Origin: Phycisphaerae bacterium
Lineage (GTDB): Bacteria > Planctomycetota > Phycisphaerae > UBA1845
Direction of reading: 5' to 3'
Assembly: GCA_030429365.1 (NCBI GenBank)
Contig: JAUIEW010000013.1
Location: 1-40,207, forward strand
Length of the DNA stretch: 40,207 nucleotides
The notes under the pieces were generated by a model. The model had not been told where the DNA came from. It worked only from the letters and a program-made list of their open reading frames with translations, and searched no databases. Below, in pieces: positions 12,557-32,406 of the stretch; position 1 is the stretch's first letter; each line of letters opens with the position of its first letter. Both the position numbers and the translations under genes were made by a program.

Positions 12557-15049
12557 TTACCTGCGATTGATCTGGCCAAGAATCTGTGGGTCTTTGATCT
12601 TCTTGTCCTCGGCGAGCAAGAACGCTTTACTCAAGATGACGCTGAGCATGCCGTCGCCTTCAAAGGGAAGATAGAATTTGTCAGCCCCTCTGGTGCCACG
12701 CGCTGGCACGATGCAAAGATACTGATCGTTGGGCAGCATCAAAATGTTGCCGCTGCCCAGGTGGATCTTGTAGGTCCGCAGCGAGCCCTTCACCACCAGG
12801 AATCGATCGATCAACTCGCAGTGCTTGGCGATCTTCAGCTTCGGAAGCAATCGCGAAAAAATATCCTGCCGCGTCTTGGCCGATTCGGACAAATCGCCAA
12901 ACGCATAGGTCGACCAGTACTCGATTCCCAGCCGATTCCCCTGATCGACCCAATTCGGATCGTTCCCAACGCTGGATACGCCGACGAACAGATCGACGTC
13001 ACGCATCACTTCGGAGAACACGATCTTCGGCACGTCGCACACGCGCACCGGTTCACGATCTGGCGTGACAAATCGAACCTGGTCGGTCGACACGTAGAGG
13101 GCAATGCCATGGTCGCTCAACCCTTCCGCACCACCATCGACCCATTCGAGCCAGAACTCGGCTTTCATGTTCCATCTTGGCAGGCTGATCGTCGGCGTAT
13201 TTTCAGAATCGAAACCACCGTAAATGCCAGTCACCCAACCGCGTTGTTGGGCAAGCGCGTTGAGTTGATGCTGTTTGAGAATGTGCGCCGCAAAACGATT
13301 TGAATAGATGTCGGTTTCTTCCTCAGCTGGTGTCAAAATGTAGATCTCGCGATGGGCTTGTTTGAAAGGTTGCGTGATTTCTTTCGCCTCAAGCCACACG
13401 CGCCATGCCCGGACTTCATCAGACGATGCATGAACCGGATGCCACAGCGTCACCTTGCATCCGCCACCTGGACTCAATATCGCACCGTCGCACGTCACCA
13501 GGCCATCGTCCGTAGAAAACGCCGCTGTCGTCTTCCCATCGAATTCGAAATTCCAAATGAGTCGTCGGGCCAGCGTAGCCGCCAGCGGGTGATCGATGAA
13601 ACGCTTGCGCCAATCGTCAAGCGACCAGACGCGCTGTTCGATCGGCGCTCGTTCGAGTCGATCGCGAATCGTAGCCAACGTCTTCTGGATGTCTTTCGCC
13701 TTCTTGCGAAGGGCTTTCAGTTCATCGTTGTGATTATCTTTGACTTGCTTGGGAACAGACTTCTGTCGCTTGCCCGCACTGGTCAGCCAGCCAAGTTCCG
13801 TTTTGCCGCCCGCGACCACCGCCAACTCCGCCGTATGCTCCCCCATCTCCACGCGAAGCACACCGTCAGCCGCCATGCCGAATGTCGGCGTGGACATTTC
13901 TTCAAGGTCCTCGGTGCTGATCCCTGTTTTCGCAGAAGCGGCTTGCAGCGCTTTTTCAATGGTCTTACGAATGCTCGGCAGTTTGATTCGCGTGCGCAGC
14001 CGACTCAGCTCGGAAACACCATGCGGCGGCGGCATCTGTCCAAACGCATAGACGCAGGCATTGCCAACTTTGGTACAGCGGGCGCCGATCTCCGGTATCT
14101 TGTGGTAGCAGCGGTCGGCTAGCTCACCAATGGTGCGGGCATACGGAGCCCCCGCCTCACCGGCGAAACACCAGACCAAACCACGGAGCACATCGGCGTT
14201 CTTCTCGTGCAACATCGACGCATCGAACGCTTCGCCCAGATATCGATTGGGCTCTCGCGTACCGGGTTCGCCGACAGCGGATACGCATTCTTCAAGAAAC
14301 GCATGAAGCGGCGCGATGCCGATGTCGTCAACAAGCTTGCGGGCTTCGGTGCTCCATTTCTTACTCGGCTTGGCTTGAGTCGCGCCGGCCGCATGGCGGA
14401 GCAGCTTCTCCCAGGGCTTGCGTTGTTTGGGATCGAGTTTCAGAAGCGACTGCATCGCCCGCTTGGCCCAGGCATCTTCAAGATTCAGCAGCGGCACTTC
14501 CTCTTCGCCCAACAGAATGCGTTTGATCTTGTCGGCATTGCGCCTGTCGCCCGCGTCTGCATACGCCGACAAGACCGCGACGTGCAATCGCCGCAATGCT
14601 TGGGCCAATTCTTCAGAAGGTTCGCCACCATCAACGTGTTTTTGAACCCGGCCAATCAGTGCCCCGACCGGCATGAAGTATCGCGATGTTTTCACCGCGC
14701 AGTCGATCAGCGAGCAAAGGCTCGCATCCGTATGCGGAAGTTTGCGACGCATGAACTGGTTGAATAGCGCCTGGCTGGAACCATGGCGCGGCGAGAAGTC
14801 CTTCGTACCACACAATCGATCGGCGACAGCCAGTAGCACAAGCAGTTGAATCTCGGGCGAAGCGGCATCGAGTTCGGGCGTCAGTGGGAAGTTTTTCGCT
14901 GTCGTGGTAAGCCACTGGTCGGCTTTGTCGGCGTGCGATTCAAGGTATCCAGTGAGTAGTGCCTGTGCTTCCCGGCGCGAGCCCGAATCGGCTTGAGCGA
15001 AAGCACCACCCCGATCGACCAACCGCTGCCAGAAATCGCGAATCCCCAT
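12557..15049 (-). CDS. DUF4132-family protein (MolR/YehI-like), partner of the GG-ended beta-grasp protein
   Basis: 830 residues, no signal peptide and no membrane segment, so cytoplasmic. The ATG at 15049 follows GAGGG about nine bases upstream. The N-terminal half is alpha-helical, as in HEAT-type or all-helical scaffolds. The central part contains 'HPLAATLARRLIWNF', typical of DUF4132 proteins such as E. coli YehI and MolR. The C-terminus contains 'LVVKGSLRTYKIHLGSGNI' and 'YLPFEGDGMLSVILSKAFLL', matching the terminal domain commonly fused to DUF4132. A K/E-rich segment at about 445-475 (KALRKKAKDIQKTLATIRDRLE) is a probable coiled coil. No enzymatic motif is recognisable, and the family has no firmly established biochemistry. 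It starts 23 bases after the stop of a small ubiquitin-like gene, so the two are almost certainly one operon. Confidence 0.85.
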   Translation of the reverse strand: MGIRDFWQRLVDRGGAFAQADSGSRREAQALLTGYLESHADKADQWLTTTAKNFPLTPELDAASPEIQLLVLLAVADRLCGTKDFSPRHGSSQALFNQFMRRKLPHTDASLCSLIDCAVKTSRYFMPVGALIGRVQKHVDGGEPSEELAQALRRLHVAVLSAYADAGDRRNADKIKRILLGEEEVPLLNLEDAWAKRAMQSLLKLDPKQRKPWEKLLRHAAGATQAKPSKKWSTEARKLVDDIGIAPLHAFLEECVSAVGEPGTREPNRYLGEAFDASMLHEKNADVLRGLVWCFAGEAGAPYARTIGELADRCYHKIPEIGARCTKVGNACVYAFGQMPPPHGVSELSRLRTRIKLPSIRKTIEKALQAASAKTGISTEDLEEMSTPTFGMAADGVLRVEMGEHTAELAVVAGGKTELGWLTSAGKRQKSVPKQVKDNHNDELKALRKKAKDIQKTLATIRDRLERAPIEQRVWSLDDWRKRFIDHPLAATLARRLIWNFEFDGKTTAAFSTDDGLVTCDGAILSPGGGCKVTLWHPVHASSDEVRAWRVWLEAKEITQPFKQAHREIYILTPAEEETDIYSNRFAAHILKQHQLNALAQQRGWVTGIYGGFDSENTPTISLPRWNMKAEFWLEWVDGGAEGLSDHGIALYVSTDQVRFVTPDREPVRVCDVPKIVFSEVMRDVDLFVGVSSVGNDPNWVDQGNRLGIEYWSTYAFGDLSESAKTRQDIFSRLLPKLKIAKHCELIDRFLVVKGSLRTYKIHLGSGNILMLPNDQYLCIVPARGTRGADKFYLPFEGDGMLSVILSKAFLLAEDKKIKDPQILGQINRR

Positions 15050-15072
15050 GACGCGTTACCCTCTCATATGGA

Positions 15073-15471
15073 TTAACCGCCGACAAGCGGAATCAATCGA
15101 AGAAAAGATACCACCGTCTCCTTCGCCAGAACGATGTCCTCGTCGAGCGTTTCGACCTGTCGATCGTTGACGAGGATCAGTATCTGGTTCTCGTCGAAGG
15201 CTTTGAGCGCTACATCAAACTGCTGCTTCCAATCCACCTGCCTCGGTTGCTTGAAGCGGTATCCGTTAAGCTCCTTCTCCGTGTCGGTCGGCTGAACCAA
15301 TCCGCCGAAGTGCGTCTGGTTGCGCTTGGTGTTGTAATCCTTCACTTCCTGATATACACGGCTGCGAATCAACTCCCGCACGGTCGTCCGTTCCGATTCA
15401 AACTCAAGCGTCCCGGCATCGCGGATGTCGCCCGACGTTGTTTCATCGCGAATCGCAATTGTAATCGACAT
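15073..15471 (-). CDS. Small ThiS/MoaD/ubiquitin-like beta-grasp protein ending in Gly-Gly
   Basis: 132 residues from the ATG at 15471, which has AAGGAG eight bases upstream. The N-terminus (MSITIAIRDETT...GTLEFESERTTVRELIRSRV) looks like the first beta hairpin and helix of a beta-grasp fold. After a polar insert (about 45-90) the last 40 residues (ILILVNDRQVETLDEDIVL...VSFLRLIPLVGG) match the closing part of ThiS/MoaD proteins, including the exact C-terminal GG. In those families the GG is adenylated by an E1-like enzyme and thiocarboxylated or conjugated. Here it is already exposed, so no processing would be needed. The protein is longer than ThiS (about 66) or MoaD (about 81). It is the first gene of an operon with the DUF4132 protein. 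The fold assignment is inferred from pattern, not from a structure search. Confidence 0.8.
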   Translation of the reverse strand: MSITIAIRDETTSGDIRDAGTLEFESERTTVRELIRSRVYQEVKDYNTKRNQTHFGGLVQPTDTEKELNGYRFKQPRQVDWKQQFDVALKAFDENQILILVNDRQVETLDEDIVLAKETVVSFLRLIPLVGG

Positions 15472-15744
15472 GGTTGATACTCCTTCATCCGACCGAGGTG
15501 GTTTCCGGCGCATTGGACCCGACTGTGCCGCGATTGTAGCACACGCCTTCGCCCGCCCCAAGGAATTTGAATCCCAACACATCCATTGAAACTGTTACGA
15601 CTCCAAACTTCGACATGGTATCTTCATTTCGCCGCGCGAGCCCCCTTGCCGAGTCATGCCTTTGCGATATAGCATTCAGTTTCACCAAAACCCAACAACG
15701 GGCGCCCAATGCCTGCTGGACCTCATGCACGGAGGAAACGCGCG
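15472..15744. other. Divergent promoter region
   Basis: About 270 bases between the divergent beta-grasp/DUF4132 operon and the GH31 gene. It must hold the promoters of both. Good ribosome sites are visible at each end (AAGGAG on the minus strand, GGAGG at 15731-15735 on the plus strand), but no convincing -35/-10 pair could be fixed. Confidence 0.5.
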
Positions 15745-28761: not shown

Positions 28762-28834
<73 letters not shown>

Positions 28835-29222
28835 GAAGGTTGTACTTCTTGCACATTTCCGCCGCGTTTGGGGCCCCGCTGCTTGGCGGATCGCCTGTGA
28901 TTTCTTGCCCGCGACGTCTGTATTGTGCTCTTCGGACAATCGCGATCCGCCCTTTATCGCCACCTTTCAAGTGACTGAAACACCGCTTCCCAACGAACCG
29001 ACATGGGCTGGCTTTCGGGCTGATCACGACCACGAACGCGGCACTTATAACGCCCAAACCCGATGATGACAACCCCGCCAGCCGCAAGAATCGCCGTTCT
29101 CGGCAATTGGCGTGTGAATTGCGTGCAATCGGCGGCTGCGTGTCAAACCAGCCCTGCCCGCGGCTATGGATTGTTGGATCGATCGTGCGGTCGATCCGCC
29201 AGCCTGCTCGGGGTTGCGATCG

Positions 29223-29247
29223 GGGGTGAAAGCCTTCGGCGCACCCC
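29223..29247. repeat. Palindrome GGGGTG...CACCCC
   Basis: GGGGTG (29223-29228) and CACCCC (29242-29247) bracket AAAGCCTTCGGCG, which can pair internally. This looks like another extragenic palindrome. It is not a tRNA or riboswitch as far as I can tell. Confidence 0.5.
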
Positions 29248-29299
29248 GGGCTACTGATTACCGCAGACCCGAGACGGCGTGGTACGTCCTTCCAGGTAG

Positions 29300-29316
29300 G
29301 GTCCGCTCTGCGGACC
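29300..29316. repeat. GGTCCGC palindrome, copy 1
   Basis: GGTCCGC-TCT-GCGGACC with GTA to the left. It forms an inverted pair with the copy at 29337. Confidence 0.75.
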
Positions 29317-29336
29317 GTTCCGAGTGACGCCCAATT

Positions 29337-29353
29337 GGTCCGCACAGCGGACC
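29337..29353. repeat. GGTCCGC palindrome, copy 2 (inverted)
   Basis: GGTCCGC-ACA-GCGGACC followed by CTAC, the mirror of copy 1 (TAGGGTCCGC...). Together the two copies with 20 bases between make a larger inverted repeat like a REP/BIME pair. Confidence 0.75.
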
Positions 29354-29402
29354 CTACAGGTATCGGTTGGCCCGAGTTCTTCGCGCCGCTAACATACGCC
29401 GC

Positions 29403-29900
29403 ATGCCTCGACGTCGAAAACGAACACCGCTGCAAGCCGCCCTGGTCATTGTCGTTGCGCTCATCGCATATGCCGGCAAGCAATGGGGTGGGTCTGGCGA
29501 TTCACCCGCGTCAACATCCAATCCCCCGTCATCCGTTTCGACCGCCAGATCACCGCACGGTTCCGACACGCCGCCGGCCCGCATCGAGTCGATCATCCGC
29601 GACGGCAAATCCGGTGAAATCATCCAGGCGCCCGCCACGGTCACCAAAACGCTGCCCGATGACAACGACGGCTCGCGACATCAACGATTCATCGTGAAAC
29701 TGGACTCCGGGCGCACGCTGCTCATCGCCCACAATATCGATCTTGCGAAACGCGTCCCCGTCAGCGAAGGCGACGCCATCCGCTTTCGCGGCCAATACGA
29801 AACCAACGAACGCGACGGCGTGATCCACTGGACCCATCGCGACCCAGCCAACAGGCGTCCGGGCGGTTGGATTCGACACGACGGACGCGAATACAAATAA
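29403..29900 (+). CDS. DUF3465 domain protein with N-terminal membrane anchor
   Basis: 165 residues from the ATG at 29403; a TTG at 29367 is also in frame. The basic start MPRRRKRTPLQ precedes one hydrophobic segment (AALVIVVALIAYAG). The C-terminal about 95 residues match DUF3465: GSRHQRFIVKLDSGRTLLIAHNIDLAKRV, then GDAIRFRGQYETNERDGVIHWTHRDP and GGWIRHDGREYK. The domain is small and beta-rich, with an OB-fold-like look and conserved His/Trp (IHWTHRDP). The function of the family is not known. The HerA-like ATPase starts 37 bases after its stop on the same strand, so the two may be an operon. Confidence 0.83.
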   Translation: MPRRRKRTPLQAALVIVVALIAYAGKQWGGSGDSPASTSNPPSSVSTARSPHGSDTPPARIESIIRDGKSGEIIQAPATVTKTLPDDNDGSRHQRFIVKLDSGRTLLIAHNIDLAKRVPVSEGDAIRFRGQYETNERDGVIHWTHRDPANRRPGGWIRHDGREYK

Positions 29901-29937: not shown

Positions 29938-32406
29938 ATGGCCACCCCGAATTACGAAAAGCTCGCGGCGTTCTATCTGGGCAAGCAATACAACCTTGAA
30001 GAAGCCGCCATCACCGACGACATCCTCCTCTACGATGCGAAGGATCTGACCACCCACGCCGTCTGCGTTGGCATGACCGGAAGCGGTAAGACGGGCCTCT
30101 GCCTCTCGCTGATTGAGGAAGCCGCCATCGATGGCATCCCCACCATCGCCATCGACCCCAAGGGCGACCTCGGCAACCTGCTGCTCGCGTTTCCGAAACT
30201 CCAGCCGGCTGACTTTCGGCCGTGGATCGACGAAGCGGAAGCCGCCCGCAAAGGGATGACGCCCGACGAATACGCAGCCGACCGGGCGAACCTCTGGAAG
30301 AAGGGTTTGAAGGATTGGGATCAGGATGGCGCCCGCATCGGGCGATTCAAAGATGCGGCCGACATCAACATCTACACCCCCGGCAGCAGCACCGGTCTGC
30401 CGCTGATGATCCTGCGATCGCTCAAAGCCCCACCCGCCAACCTGCTTGATGACAACGATGCGATGCGCGAACGATTGATGGCCGTCGTCTCCGGATTGCT
30501 CGCGCTTTTGGGGATCGACGCCGACCCGATTCAAAGTCGCGAACACATTTTGATTTCGAACATCGTCGATCGCAGTTGGCGTGCAGGTCGCGATCTCGAT
30601 GTGGCCAGTCTGATTCAATCGATCCAGACGCCGCCATTCGAGCGGCTCGGGGTGATGGATGTTGAATCGTTCTTCCCGTCGAAGGATCGCTTCAAGCTGG
30701 CGATGGCGCTGAACAACCTGCTGGCCTCACCGGGCTTTGCGGCATGGATGACGGGCGAACCGCTCGACATCGATCGACTGCTCTACACGAAGGAAGGCAA
30801 ACCGCGCGTGTCGATCCTTTCCATCGCGCATCTGTCCGAAGCCGAGCGAATGTTCTTCGTCACGATCCTGCTCAACGAAGTCGTCGCGTGGGTGCGGAGT
30901 CAACCGGGCACCGGCAGCCTGCGGGCGATTCTCTACATGGACGAGATATTCGGGTACTTCCCACCGTCGGCGAACCCGCCTTCGAAGATGCCGATGCTTA
31001 CGCTTCTCAAGCAGGCGCGGGCGTATGGCCTCGGTGTGATGCTCGCGACGCAGAACCCGGTCGATCTCGATTACAAGGGACTCGCCAACACGGGCACGTG
31101 GTTCATCGGCCGCCTGCAAACCGAACGCGACAAGATGCGGCTACTCGATGGACTGGAAAGCGCCAACGCATCGTCAACCATGAACCGCGCGCAGGCGGAG
31201 AAGGTGCTGTCGAGTTTGGGAAGTCGCGTTTTCTTGATGAACAACGTCCACGAAGACAAGCCAACACTGTTCCACACGCGGTGGGCGCTGTCGTATCTGC
31301 GCGGTCCACTCACCCGAAGCCAGATCCAGGAATTGATGGACGCGCGCAAGGTGCTTGCGGCTCAGTCCGCACCGACACCTTCCATGCCAAACGCGCAGCA
31401 ACCGCGAAACCTGCAACAGGCGTCCGCCGCAGTAAGTGACCCGGGCTTGATGTCTTGCCCCCCACCGCTGCCGCCCGGCGTGAACCAGGTTTTTCTGCCT
31501 GCGACGCGAAGCGTTCCGGATGGGGGATACCTTCGCTACGAGCCGTTGATCATTGGCAAAGGGAAATTGCATTTCGTGCGGGCGTCGGCAAAGGTCGACG
31601 ATTGGCGCGATGTGTCGCTGCTGGCGATGATCGACGGACAGTCCGGCAGCAATATCTGGGAGGCGGCAGACGGCGCGACATCCGTGGACATCGAAATGTC
31701 TGGCGAACCCAGCGCCCGTTTCGCACCGCTGCCTGCAATCGCGCAACGCAAGACGAGCTATCCAAAGTGGTCCAAGTCGTTTACCAATTTTCTGTATCGC
31801 AACCACGAGGGGACGATTCTCAAGTGCAAGGAATTGAAGCAGTATTCCGAACTCGATGAAGCCGAGTCAGACTTCCGCGTCCGCCTCCGCCACCTGCTGC
31901 ACGAAGAGCGCGACAAGGACATCGAAAAGCTTCGCAAGAAATATGCCCCGAAACTGATGGCGTTGGAAGAACGCATCCGCAAGGCCGAAGAACGCGAAGA
32001 CCGCGAGAGATCGCAAGTCAAGCAAAAGGGTGTGCAGACCGCCGTGTCATTCGGCGCGACCATCCTGGGCGCACTGTTTGGCCGAAAGAAGGCCAGCGTC
32101 GGAAACGTCGGGCGAGCAGCCTCTACCATCCGAAGTGCAAGCCGAATCGCGAAAGAGAAAGGCGATGTCGCGCGTGCCGTCGAAAACGTCAAAGCCCTCC
32201 AAGAGAGGCTGGCTGAAATGGAAGCAACGTTCGAATCCGAGATCGAAGAAATCCGCACCGAAGCCGACATCGACAATCTCGAATTCGAAGAACTAACCAT
32301 CCGCCCAAGAAAAAGTGACATCGCAGTAGAAACGCTGGCGCTGGCCTGGACGCCCTACATCGTCCGCCCGGACGGCATCGCGGAAGCGGCGTTTGAGATG
32401 GAGTAA
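29938..32406 (+). CDS. HerA/DUF853-like ATPase with C-terminal coiled coil
   Basis: 822 residues, with GAGGAG about 11 bases upstream of the ATG. Walker A is GMTGSGKTG (about residues 45-53) and Walker B is AILYMDEIFG with Asp335. The order of motifs, including PTIAIDPKGDLGNLL, MLATQNPVDLDYKGLANTG and FIGRLQTERDKMRLLDG, is that of HerA/DUF853-type hexameric pumps in the FtsK-HerA group. After about residue 430 there is a Pro-rich linker, a DUF-like domain, and a long charged coiled coil (about 640-790, with RKKYAPKLMALEERIRKAEER). No NurA nuclease is adjacent. Known relatives translocate DNA or move polypeptides; which applies here is open. The product is cytoplasmic. Confidence 0.87.
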   Translation: MATPNYEKLAAFYLGKQYNLEEAAITDDILLYDAKDLTTHAVCVGMTGSGKTGLCLSLIEEAAIDGIPTIAIDPKGDLGNLLLAFPKLQPADFRPWIDEAEAARKGMTPDEYAADRANLWKKGLKDWDQDGARIGRFKDAADINIYTPGSSTGLPLMILRSLKAPPANLLDDNDAMRERLMAVVSGLLALLGIDADPIQSREHILISNIVDRSWRAGRDLDVASLIQSIQTPPFERLGVMDVESFFPSKDRFKLAMALNNLLASPGFAAWMTGEPLDIDRLLYTKEGKPRVSILSIAHLSEAERMFFVTILLNEVVAWVRSQPGTGSLRAILYMDEIFGYFPPSANPPSKMPMLTLLKQARAYGLGVMLATQNPVDLDYKGLANTGTWFIGRLQTERDKMRLLDGLESANASSTMNRAQAEKVLSSLGSRVFLMNNVHEDKPTLFHTRWALSYLRGPLTRSQIQELMDARKVLAAQSAPTPSMPNAQQPRNLQQASAAVSDPGLMSCPPPLPPGVNQVFLPATRSVPDGGYLRYEPLIIGKGKLHFVRASAKVDDWRDVSLLAMIDGQSGSNIWEAADGATSVDIEMSGEPSARFAPLPAIAQRKTSYPKWSKSFTNFLYRNHEGTILKCKELKQYSELDEAESDFRVRLRHLLHEERDKDIEKLRKKYAPKLMALEERIRKAEEREDRERSQVKQKGVQTAVSFGATILGALFGRKKASVGNVGRAASTIRSASRIAKEKGDVARAVENVKALQERLAEMEATFESEIEEIRTEADIDNLEFEELTIRPRKSDIAVETLALAWTPYIVRPDGIAEAAFEME

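What the first reader, a model, noticed from the sequence alone, without database searches (positions are those of the whole stretch)
12557..15471. Two-gene operon: GG-ended ubiquitin/ThiS/MoaD-like protein plus a large DUF4132 protein
Seen: a 132-residue protein with an N-terminal beta hairpin, a helix and a closing 'FLRLIPLVGG', followed 23 bases later by an 830-residue DUF4132-type protein. Known: in ThiS, MoaD and ubiquitin-like proteins the C-terminal GG is adenylated by an E1-like enzyme and then carries sulfur or is conjugated. DUF4132 has no firmly established biochemistry. Inference: the DUF4132 protein could be a partner, target or scaffold of a protein-modification or sulfur-carrier pathway not yet described. 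No E1, E2, JAB peptidase or sulfur-transfer gene is in the window, so the activating enzyme would have to be elsewhere.
Basis: partly seen in the sequence, partly recalled or inferred. Interest (0 to 1): 0.85.

Follow-up and report, generated by a model that had tools for sequence, protein, structure and literature searches.

The report
Ubiquitin-like protein paired with DUF4132 protein
A small bacterial protein with the ubiquitin fold and a free glycine-glycine tail is encoded, in at least six phyla, next to the same large uncharacterised protein, which points to an undescribed two-protein system whose Deinococcus version responds to DNA damage and affects peroxide survival.

Summary
Window 15471-15073 (-) encodes a 132-aa protein ending ...LRLIPLVGG; 23 bp later 15049-12557 (-) encodes an 830-aa protein with an N-terminal HEAT/ARM-like half, DUF4132 and C-terminal DUF7737. 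The small protein is predicted beta-grasp (closest: MOCS2A/MoaD, Z 9.2) with a helical insert and a mobile tail. Its family spans Planctomycetota, Actinomycetota, Cyanobacteriota, Pseudomonadota, Deinococcota and Bacteroidota. In subfamily A, 80/80 proteins end exactly in GG-stop, and 69 of 78 testable loci have DUF4132 downstream. In 294 Planctomycetota, 16 of 19 DUF4132+DUF7737 genomes carry it; 0 of 13 DUF4132-only genomes do. No E1, fusion or recurrent third gene lies nearby. A related subfamily (B) has GG, GA or even GRLW tails, so GG is not universal. The Deinococcus pair is DR_A0165-DR_A0166: DNA-damage induced; deleting DR_A0165 raises H2O2 survival. I found no description of the module or its range. 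Best reading: an obligate Ubl-partner complex, MoaD/MoaE-like, with the GG tail docking in the DUF4132-DUF7737 protein; activation by a housekeeping E1 is possible but unproven.

The parts
15073..15471 (-). small ubiquitin/MoaD-like (beta-grasp) protein gene, 132 aa, subfamily A
   Evidence: ORF; AlphaFold2 model pLDDT 78, pTM 0.70; VIA-align Z 9.2 to MOCS2A; homologues
15076..15081 (-). two C-terminal glycine codons directly before the stop
   Evidence: 80/80 subfamily A homologues end GG-stop
15184..15321 (-). helical insert between the beta-grasp helix and the third main strand (about residues 51-96)
   Evidence: model secondary structure: H63-70, H81-93 between H31-50 and E97-101
15480..15485 (-). 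AAGGAG Shine-Dalgarno-like sequence of the small gene
   Evidence: read directly
15050..15072 (-). 23-bp intergenic gap with GAGAGG (15060-15065) before the second start
   Evidence: read directly
12557..15049 (-). DUF4132-DUF7737 protein gene, 830 aa
   Evidence: ORF and Pfam; model pLDDT 84.8
13889..15049 (-). N-terminal alpha-helical repeat half (residues 1-387), HEAT/ARM-like
   Evidence: secondary structure; VIA-align rows are HEAT/ARM proteins over residues 20-387; weak evidence, as usual for helical repeats
13235..13774 (-). DUF4132 domain (residues 426-605)
12569..12880 (-). DUF7737 domain (residues 724-827), the part whose presence tracks the small gene

Best explanation
The two genes encode an obligate two-protein module. 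The small protein is a ubiquitin-fold (beta-grasp) partner; the large one is a HEAT-repeat scaffold joined to a conserved, probably catalytic DUF4132-DUF7737 part. I propose a MoaD/MoaE-like arrangement: the Ubl body binds the large protein, with DUF7737 as the likely docking part, and the mobile GG tail reaches into a conserved pocket of DUF4132-DUF7737. Shown by computation: the fold, the invariant GG end in subfamily A, the linkage, the co-occurrence with DUF7737, and the absence of a linked E1 and of fusions. Known from experiment on the Deinococcus orthologues: DNA-damage induction and an oxidative-stress phenotype. Inferred: direct binding, tail docking, catalysis. Only possible: the tail being charged as a thiocarboxylate by a housekeeping ThiF/MoeB/MoeZ E1, so that the pair works as a sulfur-transfer or Urm1-like modifier system.
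For: Beta-grasp model and structure matches led by MoaD/MOCS2A. The tail is the least ordered part of the model (pLDDT 35), yet its two glycines are invariant (80/80, including 27 representatives under 70% identity; the scan used internal motifs, so it was not biased towards GG). Linkage: DUF4132 downstream in 69 of 78 testable loci and 24 of 27 representatives, usually overlapping or within tens of bases. Most genomes with an orphan small gene keep a DUF7737 gene elsewhere (8/10). In 294 Planctomycetota, DUF4132 genomes split 16/19 with DUF7737 versus 0/13 without it for presence of the small gene (Fisher p=3e-6). Distance matrices of the two proteins correlate, r=0.68 against at most 0.29 in 2000 permutations. 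Large protein: invariant polar residues cluster in the C-terminal half (H537, R550, Q560, Q564, R567, E568, Y570, R585, H589, R603, E680, R683, D684, D686). Deinococcus: RDRM upstream of DR_A0165; operon up on DdrO depletion; DRA0166 protein up with mitomycin, IrrE-dependent (PMC8533742; motif read at L104 2714-2733); deletion of DR_A0165 raises H2O2 survival (PMC9650054).
Against: Subfamily B, which also pairs with DUF4132-DUF7737, tolerates AGA and even SGRLW ends, so a GG-dependent reaction cannot be general to the whole family. No E1 is linked and no third gene recurs; E1 presence elsewhere is nearly universal, hence uninformative. No complex could be modelled; direct binding is inferred. 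The C-terminal half of the large protein had no fold match, so catalysis rests on conservation alone. An Acetobacter plasmid DUF4132 with a DUF7737-like end has no small gene. The published Deinococcus interaction study highlights thioredoxin 1, and its main text does not name DR_A0166 as a partner.
Confidence: 0.55

Rival explanations
1. The small protein is a purely structural or regulatory Ubl subunit. Its tail packs non-covalently on the large protein and is never adenylated, thiolated or conjugated; GG is kept for shape and flexibility.
For: Subfamily B tails GA and GRLW with the same kind of partner; no linked E1; many beta-grasp domains act only by binding (general knowledge).
Against: Absolute GG at the exact C-terminus of all subfamily A members, in a disordered tail, is more than packing usually demands.
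Confidence: 0.33
2. E1-independent conjugation: DUF4132-DUF7737 itself activates and attaches the Ubl, as PafA does for Pup.
For: Strict two-gene module with no other recurrent gene; dense invariant polar residues in the large protein.
Against: No nucleotide-binding motif or ligase fold recognised; GA and GRLW tails in subfamily B.
Confidence: 0.08
3. The small protein works independently as a thioredoxin-binding negative regulator of oxidative-stress defence, as proposed for DR_A0165, and the DUF4132 neighbour is incidental.
For: Deletion phenotype and Trx1 pull-down in D. radiodurans (PMC9650054).
Against: Trx is not a recurrent neighbour, while DUF4132 is; presence tracks DUF7737.
Confidence: 0.06
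4. Conflict module (defence or toxin-antitoxin pair): DUF4132 as effector, Ubl as its neutraliser or activator.
For: Patchy distribution, presence on plasmids or secondary replicons, and often broken large genes beside an intact small gene in Actinomycetota.
Against: No PADLOC match; no related locus found in IMG/VR viral contigs or phage genomes; no mobile-element neighbours recur.
Confidence: 0.08

Closest known systems
DR_A0165 (SEP068184) / DR_A0166 of Deinococcus radiodurans
   Same: Orthologous pair: beta-grasp protein ending LTALAGG followed 2 bp later by a DUF4132-DUF7737 protein
   Different: Belongs to subfamily B with a 1626-aa partner; published work treated the small protein as Deinococcus-only, linked it to Trx1, and did not connect the two as a module
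MoaD / MOCS2A with MoaE (molybdopterin synthase)
   Same: Closest solved fold, similar C-terminal end (MoaD ...IPPVSGG, here ...LIPLVGG), small Ubl plus larger partner
   Different: Below the Pfam ThiS/MoaD cut-off (12 vs 22.5 bits), profile match limited to the 7-residue tail, about 45-residue helical insert, partner not MoaE, no Mo-cofactor genes recurrent nearby
Urm1 / SAMP / CysO / BexX-type sulfur carriers and modifiers
   Same: Prokaryotic-type Ubl, GG end, possible reliance on a shared E1; Urm1 acts on peroxiredoxins under oxidative stress (PMC8561144)
   Different: No evidence here for thiocarboxylation or conjugation; partner is DUF4132-DUF7737
Bacterial Ubl conjugation operons (Bil and related E1-E2-JAB clusters)
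   Same: Bacterial Ubl with a C-terminal GG
   Different: No E1 in any neighbourhood and no recurrent third gene
E. coli YehI/MolR DUF4132 proteins
   Same: Share DUF4132
   Different: YehI lacks DUF7737 and has no Ubl gene; sits with MoxR, vWA and SWIM genes

Membership tests
ThiS/MoaD sulfur carriers (PF02597) | beta-grasp fold | tested here: met
ThiS/MoaD sulfur carriers (PF02597) | free C-terminal Gly-Gly | tested here: met
   window protein and 80/80 subfamily A; subfamily B varies
ThiS/MoaD sulfur carriers (PF02597) | score above the curated family cut-off | tested here: not met
   12.0 bits vs 22.5, E=0.32; profile comparison aligns 7 tail columns only
ThiS/MoaD sulfur carriers (PF02597) | adenylation by a ThiF/MoeB E1 and thiocarboxylate formation | not testable with these tools
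   E1 present elsewhere in 29/29 genomes but nearly universal
E1-E2-JAB type bacterial ubiquitin-like conjugation operons | linked E1-like gene | tested here: not met
   no ThiF hit in ORFs of 89 loci or in the window
E1-E2-JAB type bacterial ubiquitin-like conjugation operons | linked E2 or JAB peptidase gene | tested here: inconclusive
   no recurrent third gene family; no dedicated E2 or JAB search was run
DUF4132 (PF13569) | score above cut-off | tested here: met
   184.8 bits vs 27
DUF7737 (PF24879) | score above cut-off | tested here: met
   136.3 bits vs 27
YehI/MolR type DUF4132 with MoxR-vWA-SWIM neighbours | MoxR/vWA/SWIM genes adjacent, no DUF7737 | tested here: not met
   DUF7737 is present and no such genes were recognised among the window ORFs (by eye); compare

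The most novel reading that the evidence does not exclude
DUF4132-DUF7737 is a new class of enzyme that uses a dedicated, C-terminally activated ubiquitin-like protein, for sulfur transfer or for protein modification without a dedicated E1-E2 cascade, in a stress response spread over at least six bacterial phyla.
Probability: 0.25. Interest if true: 0.9.

Novelty: new variant of a known kind. Interest (0 to 1): 0.62.

Why it matters
It gives DUF4132-DUF7737 proteins, which have no known biochemistry, a dedicated ubiquitin-like partner, and joins separate pieces of Deinococcus data (a DNA-damage regulon gene and an oxidative-stress peptide) into one widespread module. It makes a direct test possible: does the GG tail of the partner carry a chemical group, and does DUF4132-DUF7737 use it? 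It also splits DUF4132 into two systems, one with a Ubl and DUF7737, one with MoxR/vWA/SWIM genes.

Tried and rejected
PDB sequence searches with the small protein and its profile gave nothing; with the large profile only designed helical repeats. NCBIfam hits to phosphoglycerate mutase (E 0.0075) are far below cut-off and rejected. PADLOC: none. Phage records and IMG/VR: none. Profile comparison with ThiS/MoaD aligned only the tail. A search for a recurrent third gene found only antisense shadow ORFs and common genes. E1 counts did not separate genomes with and without the pair. A first mixed-subfamily alignment was too diverse for the contig scan. Iyer et al. 2006, the survey of prokaryotic beta-grasp proteins, was searched by keyword only and gave no hit for this pairing.

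Full report
What is in the sequence. On the minus strand of a Planctomycetota (Phycisphaerae-like) contig, ORF 15471-15073 encodes 132 aa ending VVSFLRLIPLVGG, and 23 bp later ORF 15049-12557 encodes 830 aa. Both have Shine-Dalgarno-like sequences. The flanking genes (a large secreted metalloprotease-like protein downstream, a divergently transcribed GH31-like gene upstream, by eye) show no obvious link in function. Pfam puts DUF4132 at residues 426-605 and DUF7737 at 724-827 of the large protein; the small protein gets only a sub-threshold ThiS hit, E 0.32, to its C-terminal third. The genome holds one copy of the small gene.

Family of the small protein. Whole-genome and contig searches found relatives at 20-95% identity. 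Two subfamilies align over the full length (hhalign probability 100, E 4e-38). Subfamily A (window type; partner usually about 700-1150 aa) is in Planctomycetota, Actinomycetota, Cyanobacteriota, Pseudomonadota (Sphingomonadales) and one Chloroflexota contig that ends before the neighbour can be seen. Subfamily B (partner about 1630-1690 aa) is in Planctomycetota, Deinococcota and Bacteroidota. A cyanobacterial B-like protein (L165) ends LVPLVGG.

The tail. All 80 subfamily A proteins of the scan end in GG immediately before the stop; 27 representatives share under 70% identity. The scan patterns were internal, so this was not built in. Further Planctomycetota and cyanobacterial A members agree. 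In the model the tail has pLDDT about 35, so these invariant residues are not held by the fold itself. In subfamily B, Deinococcus ends LAGG, Planctomycetota end LAGG or LAGA, and Bacteroides finegoldii ends LSGRLW. GG is therefore a rule in A and not in B.

Fold. The model (38-sequence alignment, pLDDT 78, pTM 0.70) runs strand-strand-helix, two inserted helices, then strands 97-101, 112-114 and 120-125. Foldseek E-values are weak (best 0.013) but the rows are overwhelmingly beta-grasp proteins: MoaD/MOCS2A, ubiquitin, SUMO, superantigen-like beta-grasp domains, Ras-binding domains. VIA-align gives Z 9.2, rmsd 2.7 over 76 residues to human MOCS2A, the other rows 7.5-8.7. Such Z values lie near the noise level stated by the tool, so the consistency of the list, the topology, and the sub-threshold ThiS hit to the same C-terminal strand carry weight. 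The Deinococcus authors reached a similar MoaD-like list for DR_A0165 (PMC9650054).

Linkage. Among 79 contig loci one (L054) is cut; 69 of the other 78 have a DUF4132 frame downstream, mostly overlapping or within tens of bases. Some exceptions look like degraded remnants (L049, L052), and 8 of 10 genomes checked still hold a DUF7737 gene elsewhere. In 61 genomes (own and relatives) all nine with a full-length small gene have DUF4132; the two DUF4132 genomes without it are a contig-edge case (G010) and a YehI-like gene beside SWIM and vWA genes (G057). In 294 Planctomycetota, DUF4132 genomes with DUF7737 carry the small gene in 16 of 19 cases, those without DUF7737 in 0 of 13 (p=3e-6); of the three misses one contig starts 70 bp upstream of the gene, one DUF7737 hit is below cut-off, and one is unresolved. 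E. coli YehI also lacks DUF7737 and a small partner. So the partner tracks DUF7737, not DUF4132 alone. One counter-example is an Acetobacter plasmid gene with a DUF7737-like end and no small homologue. Protein distances of the pair correlate, r=0.68 against a permutation maximum of 0.29, which shows co-inheritance, not contact.

What is missing. No E1-like protein is encoded in the ORFs of 89 loci or of the window, no gene fuses both parts, and no third family recurs. All 29 tested genomes with the pair have a ThiF-family E1 elsewhere, but so do nearly all others. Shared E1s serving several sulfur carriers are established knowledge (MoeZ with CysO and BexX; from memory), so absence of a dedicated E1 neither supports nor refutes activation.

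The large protein. Its model (pLDDT 84.8) has a helical-repeat N-terminal half (residues 1-387) and a mixed alpha/beta C-terminal half. Matches are to HEAT/ARM proteins only. The C-terminal half holds most of the invariant polar residues, many shared with Deinococcus, Bacteroides and Novosphingobium proteins. That is compatible with an active site but is not proof of one.

Known biology. DR_A0165-DR_A0166 is this pair: the D. radiodurans record shows trxC, the small gene, then DUF4132 2 bp later. The identification rests on the trxC neighbour (DR_A0164 in PMC9650054), the DUF4132 annotation of DRA0166 and the matching upstream motif. A regulon study (PMC8533742) lists an RDRM 83 bp upstream, induction on DdrO depletion, and mitomycin- and IrrE-dependent rise of DRA0166 protein. 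The motif GGTTATGCTATTTACATAAC can be read in L104. PMC9650054 reports that deletion of DR_A0165 raises H2O2 survival, that it binds Trx1, that it is confined to Deinococcus and that it lacks an RDRM; the last two statements conflict with the present data. In the open-access papers searched, three mention DUF4132 and none of the passages found describes a Ubl partner; subscription papers and preprints were not searchable.

Mechanism and scores. I commit to an obligate Ubl-partner complex with the tail docking in DUF4132-DUF7737 (0.55). Within that, chemical activation of the tail is perhaps one in three, mainly because subfamily B relaxes the GG. The strongest rival is a non-covalent subunit (0.33). 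The finding is a new variant of a known kind: a GG-ended beta-grasp protein with a new, widespread and untested partner.

Noticed in passing
L104:2714-2733: The RDRM palindrome upstream of DR_A0165, listed in PMC8533742 but denied in PMC9650054, is present in the D. radiodurans DRR11 sequence.
   Followed up: yes
L164 (E. coli yeh cluster) and L122:3049-8999: DUF4132 proteins lacking DUF7737 sit with vWA and SWIM (in E. coli also MoxR) genes and have no Ubl gene, so DUF4132 seems to serve two different systems.
   Followed up: partly
L174:1834-2424: A distant Ubl-like protein ending VTFLRMIQVAGG without DUF4132, downstream of HPr-kinase-like and nucleotidyltransferase-like ORFs (by eye) in a planctomycete.
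   Followed up: partly
L102:4831-7629: Acetobacter plasmid DUF4132 protein with a DUF7737-like C-terminus and an unrelated small ORF upstream instead of the Ubl.
   Followed up: partly
L049, L052, L057, L076, L078: Actinomycete loci where the GG protein is intact but the DUF4132 frame is broken, shortened or missing, suggesting loss of the large gene first (or sequencing errors in high-GC assemblies).
   Followed up: no
L105:6239-13996: In Bacteroides finegoldii the pair sits on a plasmid between a rhomboid protease and a GAF-domain gene, and the small protein ends SGRLW.
   Followed up: no
window 28762-28834 (-): tRNA-Phe (GAA); the overlapping ORF 28800-29483 is probably spurious.
   Followed up: no
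window 29938-32406 (+): Large ATPase ORF whose N-terminal part resembles HerA-like P-loop ATPases (by eye); not examined.
   Followed up: no
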